The position numbers and the translations under genes were made by a program. The notes beneath the pieces were generated by a model. It saw only the letters and a list, made by a program, of their open reading frames with translations. It was not told the DNA's origin and did not search any database. A stretch of 57,027 nucleotides of DNA from Gammaproteobacteria bacterium (GTDB lineage Bacteria; Pseudomonadota; Gammaproteobacteria; Pseudomonadales; Azotimanducaceae): contig JAPPAV010000006.1 of assembly GCA_026705345.1 (NCBI GenBank), positions 1 to 57,027 on the forward strand, written 5' to 3'. The stretch's first letter is position 1; the number at the start of each line of letters is the position of its first letter. Of the stretch, positions 37,420-50,830 are shown piece after piece.

Positions 37420-39564
37420 ATGCTCGAAGGGACACCCACCCCCGAAGGGACACCCACTCGAGATGGGACACCCACCCCCGAAGGGACACCCACTCGAGAT
37501 GGGACACCCACTCCGGGATCCTCCACACCCGGTTCCCAGGAAATGCTAAAGGGGACACCCACTCCGGGATCCCCCGCACCCGGTTCTCGACGCGACCAGG
37601 AGCGGCGGCTCGACACGGCCGCCAGTCCGCTCGACGTCCACACGGACACCAACTTCCGGGAGACGCTTCGGCTCGTGTTGCGTGCGGTCTCCTACACCCG
37701 CTATTTCAAGGCGCGTTTCGCAGCGAAGTTCCTATTGATGTGGCTGTCCCTGCTGTCGCCGCTGGTCCTGCCCTGGCCACTGAAGATCGTCATCGACAAC
37801 GTGGTGTTGGGGACACCCACCGACCCCGAGGCGTTCCCGGCCTATTTCGCCCCCTTCGTGCGGTTCCTCGAGGGCATGGGCCCGGTCGAGATGATGCTCT
37901 GGGTCGTCGGCCTCGGTGCCGTGCTGGTGGTCGCGTTCGGTGCCTTCGGAACCGCCACGGATTTCACCGAAGCCCAACTCGAGGAAGGTCATGACACGGC
38001 GACCCAAACCGAGAACGAGGCGAACGCTGCGTTTAGCAAGTTCGCCGGCATCGCGGGGTTCGTGGAGTTCCGATTGCAGTTGCGGCTCACCCAGGCACTG
38101 AACCACCTACTTCGGTCGCAACTGTTCGAACGCATACAGGCCTTGCCGATGCGGGTGCTCAACGACCAGCGAATCGGCGATAGCTTGTACCGGGTGATGT
38201 ACGACACGCCGGCACTGACGAACGTCTTCTACCAGGTCATCATGTCGCCGGTTCTGGCGATCATCACCGCGTTCCTGATCCTCCTGGTAATGTCGTTCAA
38301 CTACGGCGATGCCCCGGAAGTCGTCTATCTCGCGCTTTGCATCCTGCCCCTGCAATGGCTCGCGATCATCCCGTTCCCGAGGCTGATGCGGCGCAAGAGC
38401 CAGGCGAGCCGCGCAGCCGGTGCCGTCACCACGGGCAACGTCGAAGAGGGCATGAGCAACGTCCTGGCGGTACAGAGCCTCGGAGGCAACCGCCAGGAAC
38501 GCGGCCGTTTCGATCGCCACAGCAACGAGTCGTTTAGGCGTTTCCGTGGCCAGGTGCTCGTCAGCATCATGATTCGCGCATCGATGGCTGTTGCGTACGG
38601 ACTGCTCGGCATCGTCGCGTTCTACCTGATCAGCACCCGCGTGATCGAAGGCGTTCTGACTCCTGGGGACTATGGCGTGTTGATCTACTACTACGGGTGG
38701 TTTGCAGGTGCACTGACTGCGATTCCCTACGTGTGGATCCGTATTCAGCACAACATTCCGGGCGTGCGCCGGGTGTTCTTCCTGATGGACCTGCCGAGCG
38801 AATCCTATGCAGATGGCAAGTCCATCGAGCGAATCTCGGAAGGGTTCGAAATGCACGGTGTCGGTTTCGTCTATCCCGATGGCCGGCGGGCCCTCGGTGA
38901 CATCGATCTTTCCGGTGCGGTTGGCGAAATAATCGCTTTGGTCGGCCCCACCGGTGCGGGCAAAACGACGCTCGCCCACCTTCTGCCCGCATTCCAAACG
39001 CCCACCGAAGGCACGCTGACGATCGATGGCGCCGCCGTTTCCAGCATCTCGGTCGCGAGCCTCCGCCGCCAGGTCGCCTACGTGTTCCAGGAGACGCAGC
39101 TATTCTCCGACTCCATCCTCGACAACATCCGCTACGCCAAGCCCGACGCCACGCTCGCCGAAGTCGAACACGTCGCCCGAGTTGCGGGCGCCCACAAGTT
39201 CATTTCCGAACTACCCCACGGCTACTACACTCGACTTGGCACGGTGACCAGCAAACTATCCGTCGGCCAGAAGCAACGTATTGCCATCGCCCGCGGGCTC
39301 CTTCAGGACGCCAGCATCCTCATCTTGGATGAACCCACTTCCGCTCTCGACCCCGAGACCGAGTCCTACCTTGTCGATGCACTCCAAGAAGCCGCAAGGG
39401 ACAAACTGGTCGTGGTCATCGCGCATCGACTGTCGACCGTGGCGCGCGCCCACAGGGTCGTGTTCCTCGAGCACGGACGGATTGTCGAACAAGGCCCCCC
39501 GCAGGATCTGCTCGGCGATCCCAATGGCCGTTACCGAGCATTCGTCGAACTGCAATCCGCCTAG
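37420..39564 (+). CDS. ABC exporter half-transporter with repeat-encoded N-terminal tail, subunit B of pair 2
   Basis: 714 residues from the ATG at 37420. The first ~50 residues are low-complexity, with six Gly-Thr-Pro-Thr units encoded by in-frame copies of the core GGGACACCCAC at 37429, 37447, 37465, 37483, 37501 and 37552 (spacings 18, 18, 18, 18 and 51, all multiples of three). Homology with the paralogue at 10117-12156 begins only after this tail. A later ATG at 37543 could skip most of it but lacks a spaced ribosome site. Exporter core: 'LNDQRIGDSLYRVMYD'. ATPase: Walker A 'GPTGAGKT' (509-516), 'LSVGQ' (613-617), 'ILILDE' (633-638), His669. It probably forms a heterodimer with the preceding protein. 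Confidence 0.9.
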   Translation: MLEGTPTPEGTPTRDGTPTPEGTPTRDGTPTPGSSTPGSQEMLKGTPTPGSPAPGSRRDQERRLDTAASPLDVHTDTNFRETLRLVLRAVSYTRYFKARFAAKFLLMWLSLLSPLVLPWPLKIVIDNVVLGTPTDPEAFPAYFAPFVRFLEGMGPVEMMLWVVGLGAVLVVAFGAFGTATDFTEAQLEEGHDTATQTENEANAAFSKFAGIAGFVEFRLQLRLTQALNHLLRSQLFERIQALPMRVLNDQRIGDSLYRVMYDTPALTNVFYQVIMSPVLAIITAFLILLVMSFNYGDAPEVVYLALCILPLQWLAIIPFPRLMRRKSQASRAAGAVTTGNVEEGMSNVLAVQSLGGNRQERGRFDRHSNESFRRFRGQVLVSIMIRASMAVAYGLLGIVAFYLISTRVIEGVLTPGDYGVLIYYYGWFAGALTAIPYVWIRIQHNIPGVRRVFFLMDLPSESYADGKSIERISEGFEMHGVGFVYPDGRRALGDIDLSGAVGEIIALVGPTGAGKTTLAHLLPAFQTPTEGTLTIDGAAVSSISVASLRRQVAYVFQETQLFSDSILDNIRYAKPDATLAEVEHVARVAGAHKFISELPHGYYTRLGTVTSKLSVGQKQRIAIARGLLQDASILILDEPTSALDPETESYLVDALQEAARDKLVVVIAHRLSTVARAHRVVFLEHGRIVEQGPPQDLLGDPNGRYRAFVELQSA
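37429..37562 (+). repeat. Core-repeat array GGGACACCCAC, locus 1 (inside an ABC transporter gene)
   Basis: Six exact copies of the 11-base core. The first five are spaced exactly 18 bases apart with two alternating spacers (CCCGAA-type and TCGAGAT-type); the sixth lies 51 bases on, with the spacer TCCGGGATCC shared between copies five and six. A seventh isolated copy is at 37810-37820, still in the same reading frame. The core is itself an imperfect palindrome, GGG-ACA-CCC. Confidence 0.9.
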
Positions 39565-40017
39565 CACGGTGAGCGGCGGCTTCGTCATCCAACTCGGGAG
39601 CCGCTTCCGCCGAGACACACCAACCACCCTCGACCGGTGGGACCAGGGCAACTGGCGGCAGATGGGGTCGCGGCAGATGGGAACGCCCACCGCCGGATGC
39701 GGATGATGCGGCTGGCGTACGAGTTCGTGGGGACACCCACCTTTCGCAGGCCCTTTCGATGGCCCCCGATCGACGGGCCACCGCCCATCGATGGGACACC
39801 CACCGCCATCCGATCGCCCGCCAACCAGTCCGTTACGCGCCGCTGCTTGCGGCCCTCGCATCGGCAGTGCGTGTCGAACGCAGGTTCCAACCGTCATGCA
39901 CGGTCGGTGGCTGACATCCTCATTGGCTGTTAGCTGACTGGAATTCCAGCGCTTTCTCACACCAGCAGCGGCGATCGGCCGTCACGCGGCAGGTCCCCGC
40001 TCGGTCACAATCACTCC
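39565..40017. repeat. Gap upstream of the RAYT gene with core repeats, locus 2
   Basis: No gene is supported in these 453 bases. Core copies GGGACACCCAC lie at 39730-39740 and 39793-39803, with a variant GGGAACGCCCAC at 39679-39690. Spacer sequence includes a locally repeated ATCGATGGGAC/CGATCGACGG type. The orientation is the same as in locus 1 and opposite to the copies on the other side of the RAYT gene. Confidence 0.75.
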
Positions 40018-40929
40018 ATGACTCGACCGCGATCCGAAATCGTCGACCGGGAGAACGGAGGCATCTACCACCTCGGCTCTCGCTGCGTCCGTCGCGCCCT
40101 GCTCTGCGGCAAAGACCCTCACACCCGCCGCGACTTCTCGCATCGCCGTGCTTGGATCGAAGACCGCCTGCTCGAACTCGCGGAGCTGTTCACCGTTCAC
40201 GTCTGTACCTACGCAGTCATGTCCAACCACTACCACATCACAGCCAACTACACGCCCCAGGACCGCTTCGAACTCGACGACGAGGAAGTCGCTCGCCGCT
40301 GGCTCCGCATCTACCCTCCCAAACGGTCCGACGATCTCGAACCCAGCGTCGCAAAACTGCTCGACGACCCCGACCGCCTCGCTGTGCTTCGCGACCGCCT
40401 AGGCGACCTGTCGTGGTACATGCGCTGCCTCAACGAGCCCATTGCCCGCCGCGCGAACCTTGAAGACGACTGCACCGGCCGTTTCTGGCAGGGTCGCTTC
40501 CGCTCCAAAGGCGTGCCCGACGACCGCTCCATGTGGGCCTGCATGGCCTATGACGACCTCAACCCAATCCGAGCCGGCATGGCCGAAGAGGTCGACGACG
40601 ACGAACACACATCCCTACAACGTCGCCTCGAGGAAGCGGAGGACGAACCCGAGCGCCTTGACGAACCCATGGCGCCCCTCGTTCTCCGGGACCGTAAGGT
40701 AGCCAGCGCGCCGTCCCCGACACTGCAACTAGACATGACCCTGCGCGAGTACCGCGCCTACGTCGAGTGGACTGCCGGCATCCTCCACGACGCGCCCGCC
40801 CCGCTCCCAAGGGAGCGAGCTCCACCCGCTGGCCTTGGCGACCCTAAATCCTGGCTCGACCTAGTGATGTCCTGTCGCCAGCGAGTCCCCGCCCGCACCC
40901 TGCCACGCTGGGCCCGCGCGGTCGCCTGA
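40018..40929 (+). CDS. REP-associated tyrosine transposase (RAYT, Y1/HUH family)
   Basis: 303 residues. The N-terminus 'MTRPRSEIVD...YHLGSRCVRRALLCG' and 'AWIEDRLLELAELF' are typical of the IS200-like RAYT group common in marine gammaproteobacteria. The HUH metal motif is His71-Tyr-His73 in 'VMSNHYHI', and the candidate catalytic tyrosine is Tyr178 in 'MAYDDLNPIRAG'. 'MRCLNEPIARRAN' and 'GRFWQGRF' are further family blocks. RAYTs cleave single strands at REP hairpins and are usually single-copy genes kept in place rather than classical transposons. It is flanked by core repeats in opposite orientations: GGGACACCCA on the left and TGGGTGTCCC on the right. The last 100 residues are less conserved. 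It appears intact. Confidence 0.88.
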   Translation: MTRPRSEIVDRENGGIYHLGSRCVRRALLCGKDPHTRRDFSHRRAWIEDRLLELAELFTVHVCTYAVMSNHYHITANYTPQDRFELDDEEVARRWLRIYPPKRSDDLEPSVAKLLDDPDRLAVLRDRLGDLSWYMRCLNEPIARRANLEDDCTGRFWQGRFRSKGVPDDRSMWACMAYDDLNPIRAGMAEEVDDDEHTSLQRRLEEAEDEPERLDEPMAPLVLRDRKVASAPSPTLQLDMTLREYRAYVEWTAGILHDAPAPLPRERAPPAGLGDPKSWLDLVMSCRQRVPARTLPRWARAVA

Positions 40930-41395
40930 GCTCGACGCTCGGCCGCGCGGTCTCTCGCGCCTTCTAAGCACACACGCCCGTCGCGAACCGTCCAGCACTG
41001 CGCGCCTGCCCGCGGCAGCGCCGACGAACAACCCGGTCGATCCGTCGATCACTCTGACCGCGAGGCAATTTTTTGGCCGCCATGCGTCGCGACTAAGCGC
41101 CTTGCCGGCCCAGAGCCTTAGTGAGTGTCCCAACTTCGAATTCCCGTTTCGAGGTGCCAGTTCCGAGGCGAGGTGGTTCCATTGTGGCGGTGGGTGTCCC
41201 AGTTTCGAGGTGCCAGTTTCGAGGTGCCGGTTCCGAGGCGAGGTGGTTCCATTGTGACGGTGGGTGTCCCAGTCTCGAGGTGGTGGGTGTCCCAGTCTCG
41301 AGGTGCCAGTTTCGAGGTGGCGGTGGGTGTCCCAGTCTCGAGGTGCCAGTCTCGAGGTGCCGCACCGAGTTGCCAGTTTCGCGTTGCGATTCGAC
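40930..41395. repeat. Gap downstream of the RAYT gene with core repeats, locus 2 (right side)
   Basis: No gene is supported. From 40930 to 41120 I see nothing beyond GC-rich sequence and a short T-run (41069-41074). From 41121 to 41395 there are four exact reverse-orientation cores TGGGTGTCCC at 41191, 41261, 41284 and 41324, plus a variant GAGTGTCCC at 41123. They are separated by a local unit built from TTCGAGGTGCCAG and GAGGCGAGGTGGTTCCATTGTG-type pieces (the latter twice, 70 bases apart). The spacer unit is unlike that of any other locus. Confidence 0.85.
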
Positions 41396-46566: not shown

Positions 46567-47195
46567 TTGGTTACCTCCACCACCCGGGGACGATACTAGC
46601 CAAGGACGCGGTTTCGCTCGCGCATCTTGTCCCGGGTACCAGCCGGTAGAACTTGGCCGGCCCCCCTCATTGAACCGATAGGGACACCCATGTCAAGTGA
46701 ACCGATTGGTGAACCGATTGGGAACCGATTGGGACACCCACTCCGTCTAGGTGGGAACCGATTGGACTGAACCGATTGGGACACCCACTCCGTCTAGAGT
46801 GAACCGATTGGGACACCCACTCCGTCTAGGACCATTGAACCGTTAGTGAACCGTTAGGGACACCCACCTCCAGGCGGACCGCTAGGCACCGACCTCCCGG
46901 TGGACCGCTAGGGGCGCCCACCTCCGTTTAGGACCATGGGACACCCACCCTTGAGGGGGACCCTGAGACGTCGGCGAGTAGCGTCGGCAAAGGCGTCGGC
47001 AAAGGGGACGCCCACCGATCCCAGTTCTGCGCGGGCCCGTCGGCAACGGGGACACCCACCGATCCCAGTTCTGTGCGCACCTAGAGCCGCGTTGGCGCAA
47101 TCGAACGCTGTGCCACAATGTCAGCGTTGCGCCGGCGGACGGCGGTTCGGCTTGAACGTGGCCGGCGCGACTCCTACTCAGCAAGGACCAACGAC
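46567..47195 (+). repeat. Core-repeat array GGGACACCCA, locus 3
   Basis: A 629-base gap without a supported gene, full of core repeats in the forward orientation. Exact GGGACACCCA copies start at 46681, 46731, 46778, 46810, 46857, 46938 and 47049; variants GGGGCGCCCA (46911) and GGGGACGCCCA (near 47004) show drift. Copies are joined by a local unit, GAACCGATTG or degenerate forms (GAACCGTTAG, GGACCGCTAG), repeated at least ten times, and by CTCCGTCTAG, repeated four times including a CTCCGTTTAG variant. Toward 47000 the spacer changes to GCGTCGGCAAAGG and CGATCCCAGTTCTG units. So the core is constant while the filler changes gradually. Confidence 0.9.
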
Positions 47196-49177: not shown

Positions 49178-50605
49178 CTAGAGGTCGACGCCGACGCTCA
49201 GCGAAAGCGTGCGCGGCCGTAAGACGGCGTAGTAGCCGACGAACTGATCGCGCCAGTCGCTAGCCCCGCCCGGCCACCCCGGATAGCCCGGTGTCTGCCA
49301 GACGATCTCACGGTCGTCGAACACGTTGTCGAGGAACACCGACAGTTCGAGGGAACCGCGTCGCAGGCTCACGGACGCATCCATCATCGTGTACGGCTCG
49401 TTGGGGTTATCCTTCGTGAAGTGGCCCCACCGTTCGGGTACGGAACGGAACGTGGCGTTCGCCCTGAGTTCGCCGAGCGCCGTGTCCTGGGCCCAGTCGG
49501 CGAGCACGGAGAACTGGACCCCGCTGGTCGAACCGGGCAGCGGCAGCCCCACGAAGTTCTGGCGTTGGTCGTCAAGGATTTCGGAGTCCTTCCAGCCAAG
49601 GTGGAGGGTCAGTTCGAGGTTGTCGTTGACGGCGTAGATGCCCATCGCCTCGATGCCGATGACCTCCGACTCGCCGATGTTGACCAGCGAACGCCCCGAC
49701 TGTTGGAAACGGCCCTGGGTCGCCGCATAGTCTCGGAACGTGGGCGACTGCATGTCCGCCCAGTCGATCCGGTAGATGCTGCCGTTCAACACCAGGCGGC
49801 CGTCGTCCCACGCGCTGCGGACGCCCGCCTCATAGTTCCACACAGCGTCCGACTCGTACGGGGTGAACACTTCGACGCGGGAATCCCAGTCACCGTCGAC
49901 GGTGTTGTATTCGATCAAGTTGACGCCGCCCGGACGGTATCCATTGGCCGCAAACGCGAACAGCATGATGTCGTCGCTGACGTGGTAGTCGACGTTGAAC
50001 CGGTAGGTATCCACATCCTGCCAAGGCGACGCGCGACCGCCGGGGCCGTCCCCGTACCAACACGGTCCCAAATCGCCGGATCTCGTGAAGTTGGTGCTCA
50101 ACTGGGACCGACGGTAGCCGACGGTGAACTTCAACTGCTCGGTGAAGTTGAAACCTACTTCGCCGTACGCCGTTTTCTCGTCCTGGTTGTTGATCGTGTA
50201 GTTCTTGTGGAAGATCACGCCACCCGCGACATCCACCTCGGGGCAACCACCGGTCCATTGTTCTGCGGCTTGCAGTTCCTCGATCAGCTGGGGATCGTCG
50301 GTATCCCACCAGAAAAAGCTGCCACGCCTGTGGTTGGCGTTCTCGTACCAGACGCCGGCCACCCAGTCGATGAACTCGTTCCCGTCGGCCGATGACACCG
50401 CGCGCACTTCCATGGTTTCGATGTCGCGTTCCGACGGCCCTTCCGTAATGCGGAAATCCGCTTTCAGGCCGCGGGGCGTCAGGCCGCCCACGGGGACGCC
50501 GGGACACCAGCCGTCCGGCAGGCACTCCCACAGGACGTTGCGTTCAAAGAAGCTATGGTTGGCCATGTTGGCGCCGATCACCGATGGCCGACATGGAACA
50601 CCCAC
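49178..50605 (-). pseudogene. TonB-dependent receptor 4, C-terminal barrel fragment
   Basis: 475 codons of barrel only. Homology to receptors begins within the barrel ('DWVAGVWYENANHRRGSFF' appears early) and includes 'FAANGYRPGGVNLIEYNT', 'VWNYEAGVRSAWDDGRLV', 'LNGSIYRIDWADMQSP' and the end 'LRPRTLSLSVGVDL'. There is no signal peptide, TonB box or plug. The open frame ends in a core-repeat variant (GGAACACCCACC at 50595-50606) at the edge of repeat locus 4, so the 5' half of the gene has been lost exactly where the array begins. No frameshift is visible in what remains, so the truncation may be recent. It cannot be a working receptor. Confidence 0.82.
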
Positions 50606-50830
50606 CGCGGAGCCCGATCATGGCACCCTCTGCGACTTAGCTGAGTGGGTGTCCCAAGGGTGGGTGTCCCGTAATCAACGCTCAAGGGTGGGTGTCCCGT
50701 AATCAACGCTCTACCCCGGGTGGGTGTCCCTAAATCAACGCGGGTGGGTGTCCCTAAATCAACGCTCTAAGCCAACGCTCCTAAGCCAACGCTCTTTAGT
50801 CGACACCCTATTAATCAACACCTTAATCAA
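50595..50830 (-). repeat. Core-repeat array TGGGTGTCCC, locus 4
   Basis: Exact reverse-orientation cores start at 50646, 50661, 50689, 50721 and 50745, plus a forward-reading variant at 50595. The local filler is (G/A)TAATCAACGCTC or CTAAATCAACG, present at least five times, then decaying into TAAGCCAACGCTC (twice), TAGTCGACACC and TAATCAACACC toward 50830. The array sits between the truncated receptor and the second luciferase-like gene and must contain that gene's promoter region. Confidence 0.9.

What the first reader, a model, noticed from the sequence alone, without database searches (positions are those of the whole stretch)
39565..41395. RAYT transposase flanked by core repeats in opposite orientation
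The HUH/Y1 transposase at 40018-40929 has GGGACACCCA copies to its left and TGGGTGTCCC copies to its right, and the same core occurs at three further loci in this window. RAYTs are known to be bounded by inverted REPs that they recognise. This core is far shorter (a 3-bp stem, GGG-ACA-CCC, plus AC) than textbook REPs and lacks an evident GTAG head, so the pair may be an undescribed RAYT-repeat system.
Basis: partly seen in the sequence, partly recalled or inferred. Interest (0 to 1): 0.75.

Follow-up and report, generated by a model that had tools for sequence, protein, structure and literature searches.

The report
Transposase with short repeats seeding arrays
A bacterial single-strand-DNA transposase gene is bracketed by an eleven-letter DNA word, and related genomes that own the gene carry that word in tandem arrays whose in-between letters differ from species to species, which hints at an enzyme that keeps rewriting its host's DNA.

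Summary
Confirmed and extended. GGGACACCCA occurs 25 times in the window (0.10 expected), forward left of the Y1/HUH transposase, reverse right of it. Of 206 genomes of the GTDB family (own included), 13 carry 12-171 copies of GGGACACCCAC and 193 carry 0-6; all 12 genomes with a full-length orthologue are among the 13. Around 76 non-redundant relatives GGACANNCA bounds the gene in the same inverted layout: 229 sites so oriented, 11 otherwise. G009, whose bounding copies read GGGACATCCAC, has 288 of those genome-wide; 16 other genomes have 1-12. The protein fits TnpAY1 subclass 2.3, reported without associated repeats (PMC6006769). The hairpin reading fails: 70 of 220 cores can form the stem. 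New: arrays at orthologous sites keep the core while spacers are nearly unrelated between sister species, and tag copies lacking a core mostly break off 1-3 nt inside it. I infer a nick near GG^GACA that drives local duplication; cleavage itself is untested. Nearest known kinds: TIRYT and RAYT-REP systems.

The parts
40018..40929 (+). Y1/HUH transposase gene, 303 aa (RAYT side, fits TnpAY1 subclass 2.3); H71-Y72-H73 and Y178
39730..39740 (+). left core GGGACACCCAC
39793..39803 (+). left core GGGACACCCAC, nearest to the gene
41121..41130 (-). near-core (GGGACACTCA), nearest to the gene on the right
41121..41361 (-). right array A3: cores at 41190-41200, 41260-41270, 41283-41293, 41323-41333; tag CACCTCGAAACT / CACCTCGAGACT, also repeated without core
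37426..37562 (+). array A1: six cores, 18-bp units, at the ABC1/ABC2 gene junction, readable as GTPT repeats at the start of the ABC2 ORF
37810..37820 (+). single core inside the ABC2 coding sequence
46672..47077 (+). array A4: seven cores, tag GAACCGATT, later GTCGGCAA(A/C)G; between two genes
50645..50767 (-). array A5: five cores, tag GCGTTGATTTA / GCGTTGATTAC

Best explanation
The gene encodes a Y1 HUH single-strand DNA nuclease/strand-transferase of the RAYT/TnpAREP side (it fits TnpAY1 subclass 2.3) whose cognate site is a short linear word, (G)GGACANNCA(C), here GGGACACCCAC. Inverted copies of the word bound the gene and are probably its ends. Shown by sequence: the inverted bounding and its conservation in most of 76 relatives, the co-occurrence of gene and word, the genome-wide match of a one-base variant in G009, the arrays with conserved core and locus-specific spacers, and the break of core-less tag copies mostly 1-3 nt inside the core. 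Inferred: the protein binds the word on single-stranded DNA (for instance the lagging-strand template), nicks near GG^GACA, holds the 5' phosphate on Tyr178 and leaves a 3'-OH on the tag side. That end is re-primed upstream, which duplicates the last 11-15 nt, or is transferred to another core, which duplicates or deletes core-to-core units. Pairs of inverted cores, with or without the gene between them, may also move as a unit (the gene element; a palindromic element of about 106 nt). Rounds of this keep only units that still hold a core, which would explain constant cores and fast-changing spacers.
For: 49 copies genome-wide, control 1. Of 206 family genomes (own included) 13 have 12-171 copies and 193 have 0-6; matches of at least 51% identity reaching residue 298 lie in 12 genomes, all among the 13; the 13th (G001) has a 61% C-terminal fragment at a contig end. 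The split holds inside three genera: 8 of 16, 1 of 9, 4 of 9. Inverted bounding in 76 relatives: 117 and 112 sites against 3 and 8; 209 permuted words reach at most 27; median 97 nt before the ATG and 198 nt after the stop. G009: 7 of 7 bounding GGACANNCA sites read GGACATCCA and GGGACATCCAC occurs 288 times there, 1-12 times in 16 other genomes. Fold: 4er8, the RAYT-REP complex, is the top hit, E 1.5e-5; HUH and Tyr invariant in 50 sequences. Orthologous arrays share core but few spacer words. Break points: 78 core-less tag copies diverge 0:2, 1:14, 2:27, 3:16, 4:8, 5:3, later 8; immediate divergence 2 of 78 against 96 of 403 at control anchors.
Against: No biochemistry. 14 of 76 relatives have no such core in the expected orientation within 700 nt; the G214 gene (L084/L154) has none although its genome has 17 copies. 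Both G003 copies look damaged (one internal stop, one truncated) although that genome has 53 cores. The two variable core letters cluster only weakly on the protein tree: 33 changes against a shuffled mean of 37.1, as low in 1 of 200 for all groups together, no single listed group significant; a 93% identical protein in G002 has GGACAGCCA five times beside it. Break points could be blurred by the G run and by decayed cores; one control anchor (+20) also diverged at once only in 1 of 32. Ordinary slippage could extend arrays once seeded. No clean empty site of a moved unit was found. Co-occurrence was not corrected for phylogeny beyond the three-genus split.
Confidence: 0.7

Rival explanations
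1. The core copies are scattered remains of the transposase element's ends and of small core-bounded elements; the arrays then grew by ordinary host replication slippage, with no part for the transposase in array growth.
For: Tandem arrays elsewhere grow by slippage (general knowledge). A core-bounded element exists: 39 mostly partial matches in G009 and one in the own genome. Some arrays in G009 have 25-bp spacing like the left end of that element. Array units are short and GC-rich.
Against: Spacers turn over while the core stays at orthologous sites; break points of core-less tags sit mostly 1-3 nt inside the core; single and two-unit sites with private tags exist (L013/L018), so core and tag are not one transposed unit.
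Confidence: 0.25
2. A hairpin-recognising RAYT with a miniature REP: GGG-ACA-CCC is a very short stem-loop read as structure.
For: Inverted layout around a RAYT-like gene; GGG and CCC can pair; the nearest solved fold is the RAYT bound to a REP hairpin.
Against: 70 of 220 bounding cores in relatives can form the stem; folding is -1.3 kcal/mol alone and -1.4 to -2.5 in four array contexts, in most cases within the range of shuffles; no conserved GT[AG]G head beside the core.
Confidence: 0.04
3. The word is a binding site of an unrelated host protein and its presence near the transposase is coincidence or hitch-hiking.
For: Copies also lie far from the gene (25 of 49 on other contigs).
Against: Perfect split of 206 genomes with the gene; inverted bounding in relatives of many genera; matching variant in G009.
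Confidence: 0.01

Closest known systems
TnpAY1 subclass 2.3 (Quentin et al. 2018, PMC6006769; abstract, sections 11 and 12 and part 1 of section 15 read)
   Same: NHYH, Y-x-x-LNP, about 300-330 aa, an insert after the HUH strand, a C-terminal tail, Gammaproteobacteria
   Different: The paper reports no REP-like sequence for this subclass; here a linear inverted word bounds the gene and fills arrays. Their profiles were not run.
TIRYT / TIRtron (Di Nocera et al. 2013, PMC3733652; passages read)
   Same: RAYT-like gene bounded by inverted repeats that are not GTAG REPs; motif GGGGWSAS can read GGGGACAC; dispersed copies in pairs and groups
   Different: By PMC6006769 the 26 TIRYTs fall in subclasses 2.1, 2.2 and 2.5; their TIRs are described as long; locus-specific spacers with fast turnover are not mentioned in the passages seen
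RAYT-REP / REPIN / BIME (PMC2817692 and PMC8266576, passages read)
   Same: Y1 HUH protein bounded by inverted copies of a genome-wide repeat; inverted pairs and tandem forms
   Different: REPs are hairpins with a GT[AG]G head; here a word of about 11 nt with no conserved hairpin or head
IS200/IS605
   Same: Y1 HUH fold and active site
   Different: One full-length gene copy in the own genome; ends are inverted words, no subterminal hairpin found by the core analysis; tnpB was not searched for

Membership tests
Y1 HUH transposase superfamily (TnpAY1) | HUH pair and one catalytic Tyr on the Y1 fold | tested here: met
   H71, H73, Y178 invariant in 50 sequences; top structure hit 4er8, E 1.5e-5; 43 of 50 relatives match Y1_Tnp at E up to 0.1, the window protein itself does not
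TnpAY1 subclass 2.3 | NHYH, WE, YVDLNP; median 325 aa; insert of about 55 aa between beta3 and alphaC; specific C-terminal tail | tested here: inconclusive
   Window: NHYH, WQ, YDDLNP, 303 aa; family consensus NHYH, WE, YVDLNP; extra helices between strand 71-78 and helix 131-149 in the model. The published profiles were not available
TnpAY1 subclass 2.3 | no associated repeat (as reported) | tested here: not met
   229 against 11 oriented cores around 76 relatives
RAYT-REP system (REPtron) | gene bounded by inverted copies of a genome-wide repeat | tested here: met
RAYT-REP system (REPtron) | repeat is a hairpin with a 5' GT[AG]G head | tested here: not met
   no conserved letters beside the core; stem possible in 70 of 220
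TIRYT / TIRtron | RAYT-like gene bounded by non-REP inverted repeats | tested here: met
TIRYT / TIRtron | TIR with motif GGGGWSAS | tested here: inconclusive
   4 of 25 window cores are preceded by G and fit; the core itself supplies GGGACAC
IS200/IS605 insertion sequence | multicopy near-identical element in the host | tested here: not met
   one full-length copy and two partial matches at 42-44% in the own genome
RAYT-type activity | cleavage and strand transfer at the cognate repeat | not testable with these tools
   needs purified protein

The most novel reading that the evidence does not exclude
The enzyme is an array writer: it nicks a linear word of about 11 nt at GG^GACA and copies whatever host sequence lies just 5' of the nick, so that each seeded site grows into a private tandem array whose word is kept and whose spacers are replaced within the life of a species. 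That would be a site-specific tandem-duplication and sequence-diversifying activity, distinct from transposition of a defined element.
Probability: 0.35. Interest if true: 0.88.

Novelty: new variant of a known kind. Interest (0 to 1): 0.73.

Why it matters
A group of Y1 proteins catalogued in 2018 as having no associated repeats appears to have one: a word too short and too weakly folded for hairpin-based searches. That gives a substrate to test for an orphan family spread over Gammaproteobacteria. The arrays are a natural record of what the enzyme may do to DNA, with a predicted nick position, and a case where a transposase may drive very fast local sequence change, including 18-bp in-frame repeats at the start of a transporter ORF in the window.

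Tried and rejected
Hairpin REP reading: rejected on the 220 bounding cores and the folds. Strict one-protein-one-core-variant reading: not supported by the tree or by G002 (GGACAGCCA five times beside a 93% identical protein), although G009 supports it. CRISPR-like reading: set aside by inspection only, because spacers are repeated within an array and the shared word is short. In-frame spacing at A1 as a general rule: multiples of 3 in the window, not at the orthologous G003 and G006 arrays. Empty site for the own-genome 106-nt element: only the right flank is homologous in G003 and G011, the left side differs, so no target site could be read. A first histogram of repeat ends was confounded by core-core matches and was replaced. 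In one search I used n = 207 and 9 of 16 for the window's genus; the family set is 206 with the own genome included and the genus count is 8 of 16, and one search gives the corrected figures. Literature: the listings showed no paper that ties this word to a transposase; listings were capped, the library lacks most subscription journals, and Bertels et al. 2017 was not seen (recalled only).

Full report
WHAT IS THERE. The ORF at 40018-40929 and the listed core copies are real. GGGACACCCA occurs 25 times in the window against 0.10 expected. Tandem Repeats Finder shows arrays, each with its own unit, at 37.4, 41.2, 46.7 and 50.7 kb. Laid out by core, each array repeats a private tag directly 5' of the core: CTCGAGAT/CCCCCGAA at 37.4 kb, CACCTCGAAACT at 41.2 kb, GAACCGATT at 46.7 kb, GCGTTGATTTA at 50.7 kb. 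Some tags are also repeated without a core. In 33 arrays (185 cores) from the window and selected loci of G002, G003, G004, G006, G009, G021 and G044 the information lies in GGGACACCCAC and falls to near background on both sides; mean identity of the 8 nt before the core is 4.63 of 8 within an array and 2.17 between arrays.

THE PROTEIN. The window protein has no Pfam match and a sub-cutoff match to the NCBI REP-associated transposase model (31.9 bits, cutoff 80). In an alignment of 50 sequences H71, H73, Y178, N182 and P183 are invariant; 43 of the 50 match Y1_Tnp at E up to 0.1, best 7.5e-5. Sequence searches of the PDB gave no credible relative. The AlphaFold2 model (pLDDT 87.5, pTM 0.87) finds 4er8, the RAYT bound to a REP hairpin, first (E 1.5e-5), then IS200/IS605 transposases at E above 0.01. 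Motifs, length and the insert after the HUH strand fit TnpAY1 subclass 2.3 as tabulated in PMC6006769. That paper states that neither automatic nor manual searches found REP-like sequences for subclasses 2.1 and 2.3.

THE WORD FOLLOWS THE GENE. GGGACACCCAC: 49 copies in the own genome, reversed-pattern control 1. In the 206 genomes of the family, own included, 13 have 12 or more: G000 49, G001 72, G002 31, G003 53, G004 33, G006 106, G009 171, G011 116, G021 26, G044 28, G211 16, G214 17, G216 12. The other 193 have 0-6. The protein search of the same set finds matches at E up to 0.001 in 84 genomes, but matches of at least 51% identity that reach residue 298 or beyond in 12: all of the 13 except G001, which has a 61% C-terminal fragment at a contig end. 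In G003 one copy has an internal stop and the other is truncated. The split holds inside three genera (8 of 16, 1 of 9, 4 of 9). Genomes with only more distant paralogues have 0-6 copies of this word; they may have words of their own. No phylogenetic correction was applied beyond that.

THE WORD BOUNDS THE GENE IN RELATIVES. From 80 GTDB loci (232 candidates encoded a relative, the best 80 were kept) plus genome-search loci, 94 unique proteins of at least 270 aa were kept out of 124 loci and thinned to 76. Within 700 nt, GGACANNCA occurs 117 times upstream forward and 112 times downstream reverse, against 3 and 8 in the other orientations; 209 permuted words reach at most 27. Both sides carry it in 40 of 76 loci, at least one in 62, none in 14. 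The nearest core sits at a median 97 nt before the ATG (n = 54) and 198 nt after the stop (n = 49); density falls to about background beyond 500-700 nt. The 80 GTDB loci alone, with a slightly looser word, give 131 and 111 against 3 and 10. In four named records of Shewanella, Pseudoalteromonas, Photobacterium and Catenovulum (4 of the 13 plasmid hits) related words are seen (AGACACCCA, AGACAGCCA, GGACAGACA, AGACAGGCA); Shewanella has one upstream and none downstream in the expected orientation.

THE VARIANT TEST. The seven bounding sites of G009's gene all read GGACATCCA (L080). GGGACATCCAC occurs 288 times in G009 and 1-12 times in the 16 other genomes asked. G009 also has 171 copies of GGGACACCCAC. 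On the tree of 94 proteins the two variable letters cluster only weakly, so a tight match of protein and variant is not general.

NOT A HAIRPIN REP. The letters next to the core are not conserved. Of 220 bounding cores 70 can form the 3-bp stem. The word alone folds at -1.3 kcal/mol, four array contexts at -1.4 to -2.5.

FAST TURNOVER. A 15-kb piece of the window was compared with the 16 genomes of the genus, own included, and 20 stretches were read. At A4 the window, G002, G003 and G006 have arrays at the same intergenic place with the same core and different tags; at A5 likewise, with G004 array-free; at A1 the window, G003 and G006 have arrays and G011, G004, G009, G001, G013 and G012 have none. 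Spacer 8-mers shared between orthologous arrays number 0-6 of 34-147 over 15 pairs, while the flank stretches that aligned are 74-94% identical; some flanks gave no alignment. At A1 the array-free G004 sequence reads GAGGCGACATTCACACC where the window has GAAGGGACACCCAC, so a core may arise in place from a near-match. G011 lacks the gene at the window's locus but keeps two cores there.

A BREAK POINT IN THE CORE. Copies of the 9 nt before a core that are not themselves followed by a core were collected: 78 from 29 locus files. They diverge from the core-bearing copy 0 nt into the core twice, then 1:14, 2:27, 3:16, 4:8, 5:3, 7:1, 8:2, 9:5. Control anchors diverge at once in 71 of 249, 10 of 64, 6 of 25, 1 of 32 and 8 of 33 (96 of 403 together), against 2 of 78. 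In 48 of the 78 the tag begins again within 13 nt, in 41 of these with a period of 11-15 nt. The copies are related within arrays and the G run blurs the exact position, so this is a lead, not a mapped cut. A nick with a free 3'-OH on the tag side, followed by backward re-priming, would leave it; TnpAREP leaves such a 3'-OH and a 5' phosphotyrosine (PMC8266576, passages).

MOVEMENT AS A UNIT. G009 has a palindromic unit of about 106 nt bounded by GGGACATCCACCC with an internal GGGACACCCAC: 39 matches, mostly partial, and one 79% copy in the own genome (G000:C33:9809-9907), none in the other 36 genomes asked. The query was a composite of two neighbouring copies. Homology of the own-genome locus to G003 and G011 starts at the right end of the unit; the left side differs.

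NEARNESS TO THE GENE. 24 of 49 copies lie on the window contig, all within about 10 kb of the gene. In G021, of another genus, 15 of 26 lie on the gene's contig. In G003 33 of 50 listed copies lie on the contig of one gene copy; in G006 43 of 100 listed copies lie on one gene contig and 9 on the other. Cases within the window's genus are not independent, because arrays sit at orthologous places.

READING. Shown: the association, the layout, the variant match in G009 and the turnover. Inferred: single-strand cleavage at the core and duplication from the nick. It is closest to TIRYTs and RAYT-REP systems and differs in the short linear word, the lack of a conserved hairpin and head, and the private spacers of each array.

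Noticed in passing
G000:C33:9809-9907 (L008) and G009 C29, C87, C108, C147: A palindromic element of about 106 nt with core-bearing ends; several copies in G009, one in the own genome at what looks like a rearrangement point.
   Followed up: partly
G009, e.g. C12:7360-7518, C28:16829-17025, C35:34588-34971: GGGACATCCAC copies in G009 are often spaced exactly 25 bp and occur in inverted sets, unlike the irregular spacing of the GGGACACCCAC arrays.
   Followed up: no
window 37426-37562: Array A1 adds GTPT-type repeats in frame at the start of the ABC2 ORF; all five spacings are multiples of 3 in the window, but not at the orthologous arrays of G003 and G006.
   Followed up: partly
window 49178-50605 (-): An ORF that reads like the C-terminal part of a TonB-dependent receptor (my reading of the translation, no search) ends next to array A5; the interval is much shorter in G002 and G003.
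   Followed up: no
L230 (G003:C51) and L045/L076 (G003:C231): In G003 one transposase copy is truncated and runs into its right flank, with the right cores gone, and the other has an internal stop.
   Followed up: partly
L013/L014 (G000:C73) and L018/L019 (G000:C94): Two-unit sites with private tags elsewhere in the own genome look like young arrays.
   Followed up: no
L061, L062, L064, L081, L117: Some divergent relatives are flanked by repeated words outside GGACANNCA, such as CCCGACACACAA, GACAGGCGAAC, GGGACACCTAC and AGACACCCA, so the family word is wider than the pattern counted.
   Followed up: no
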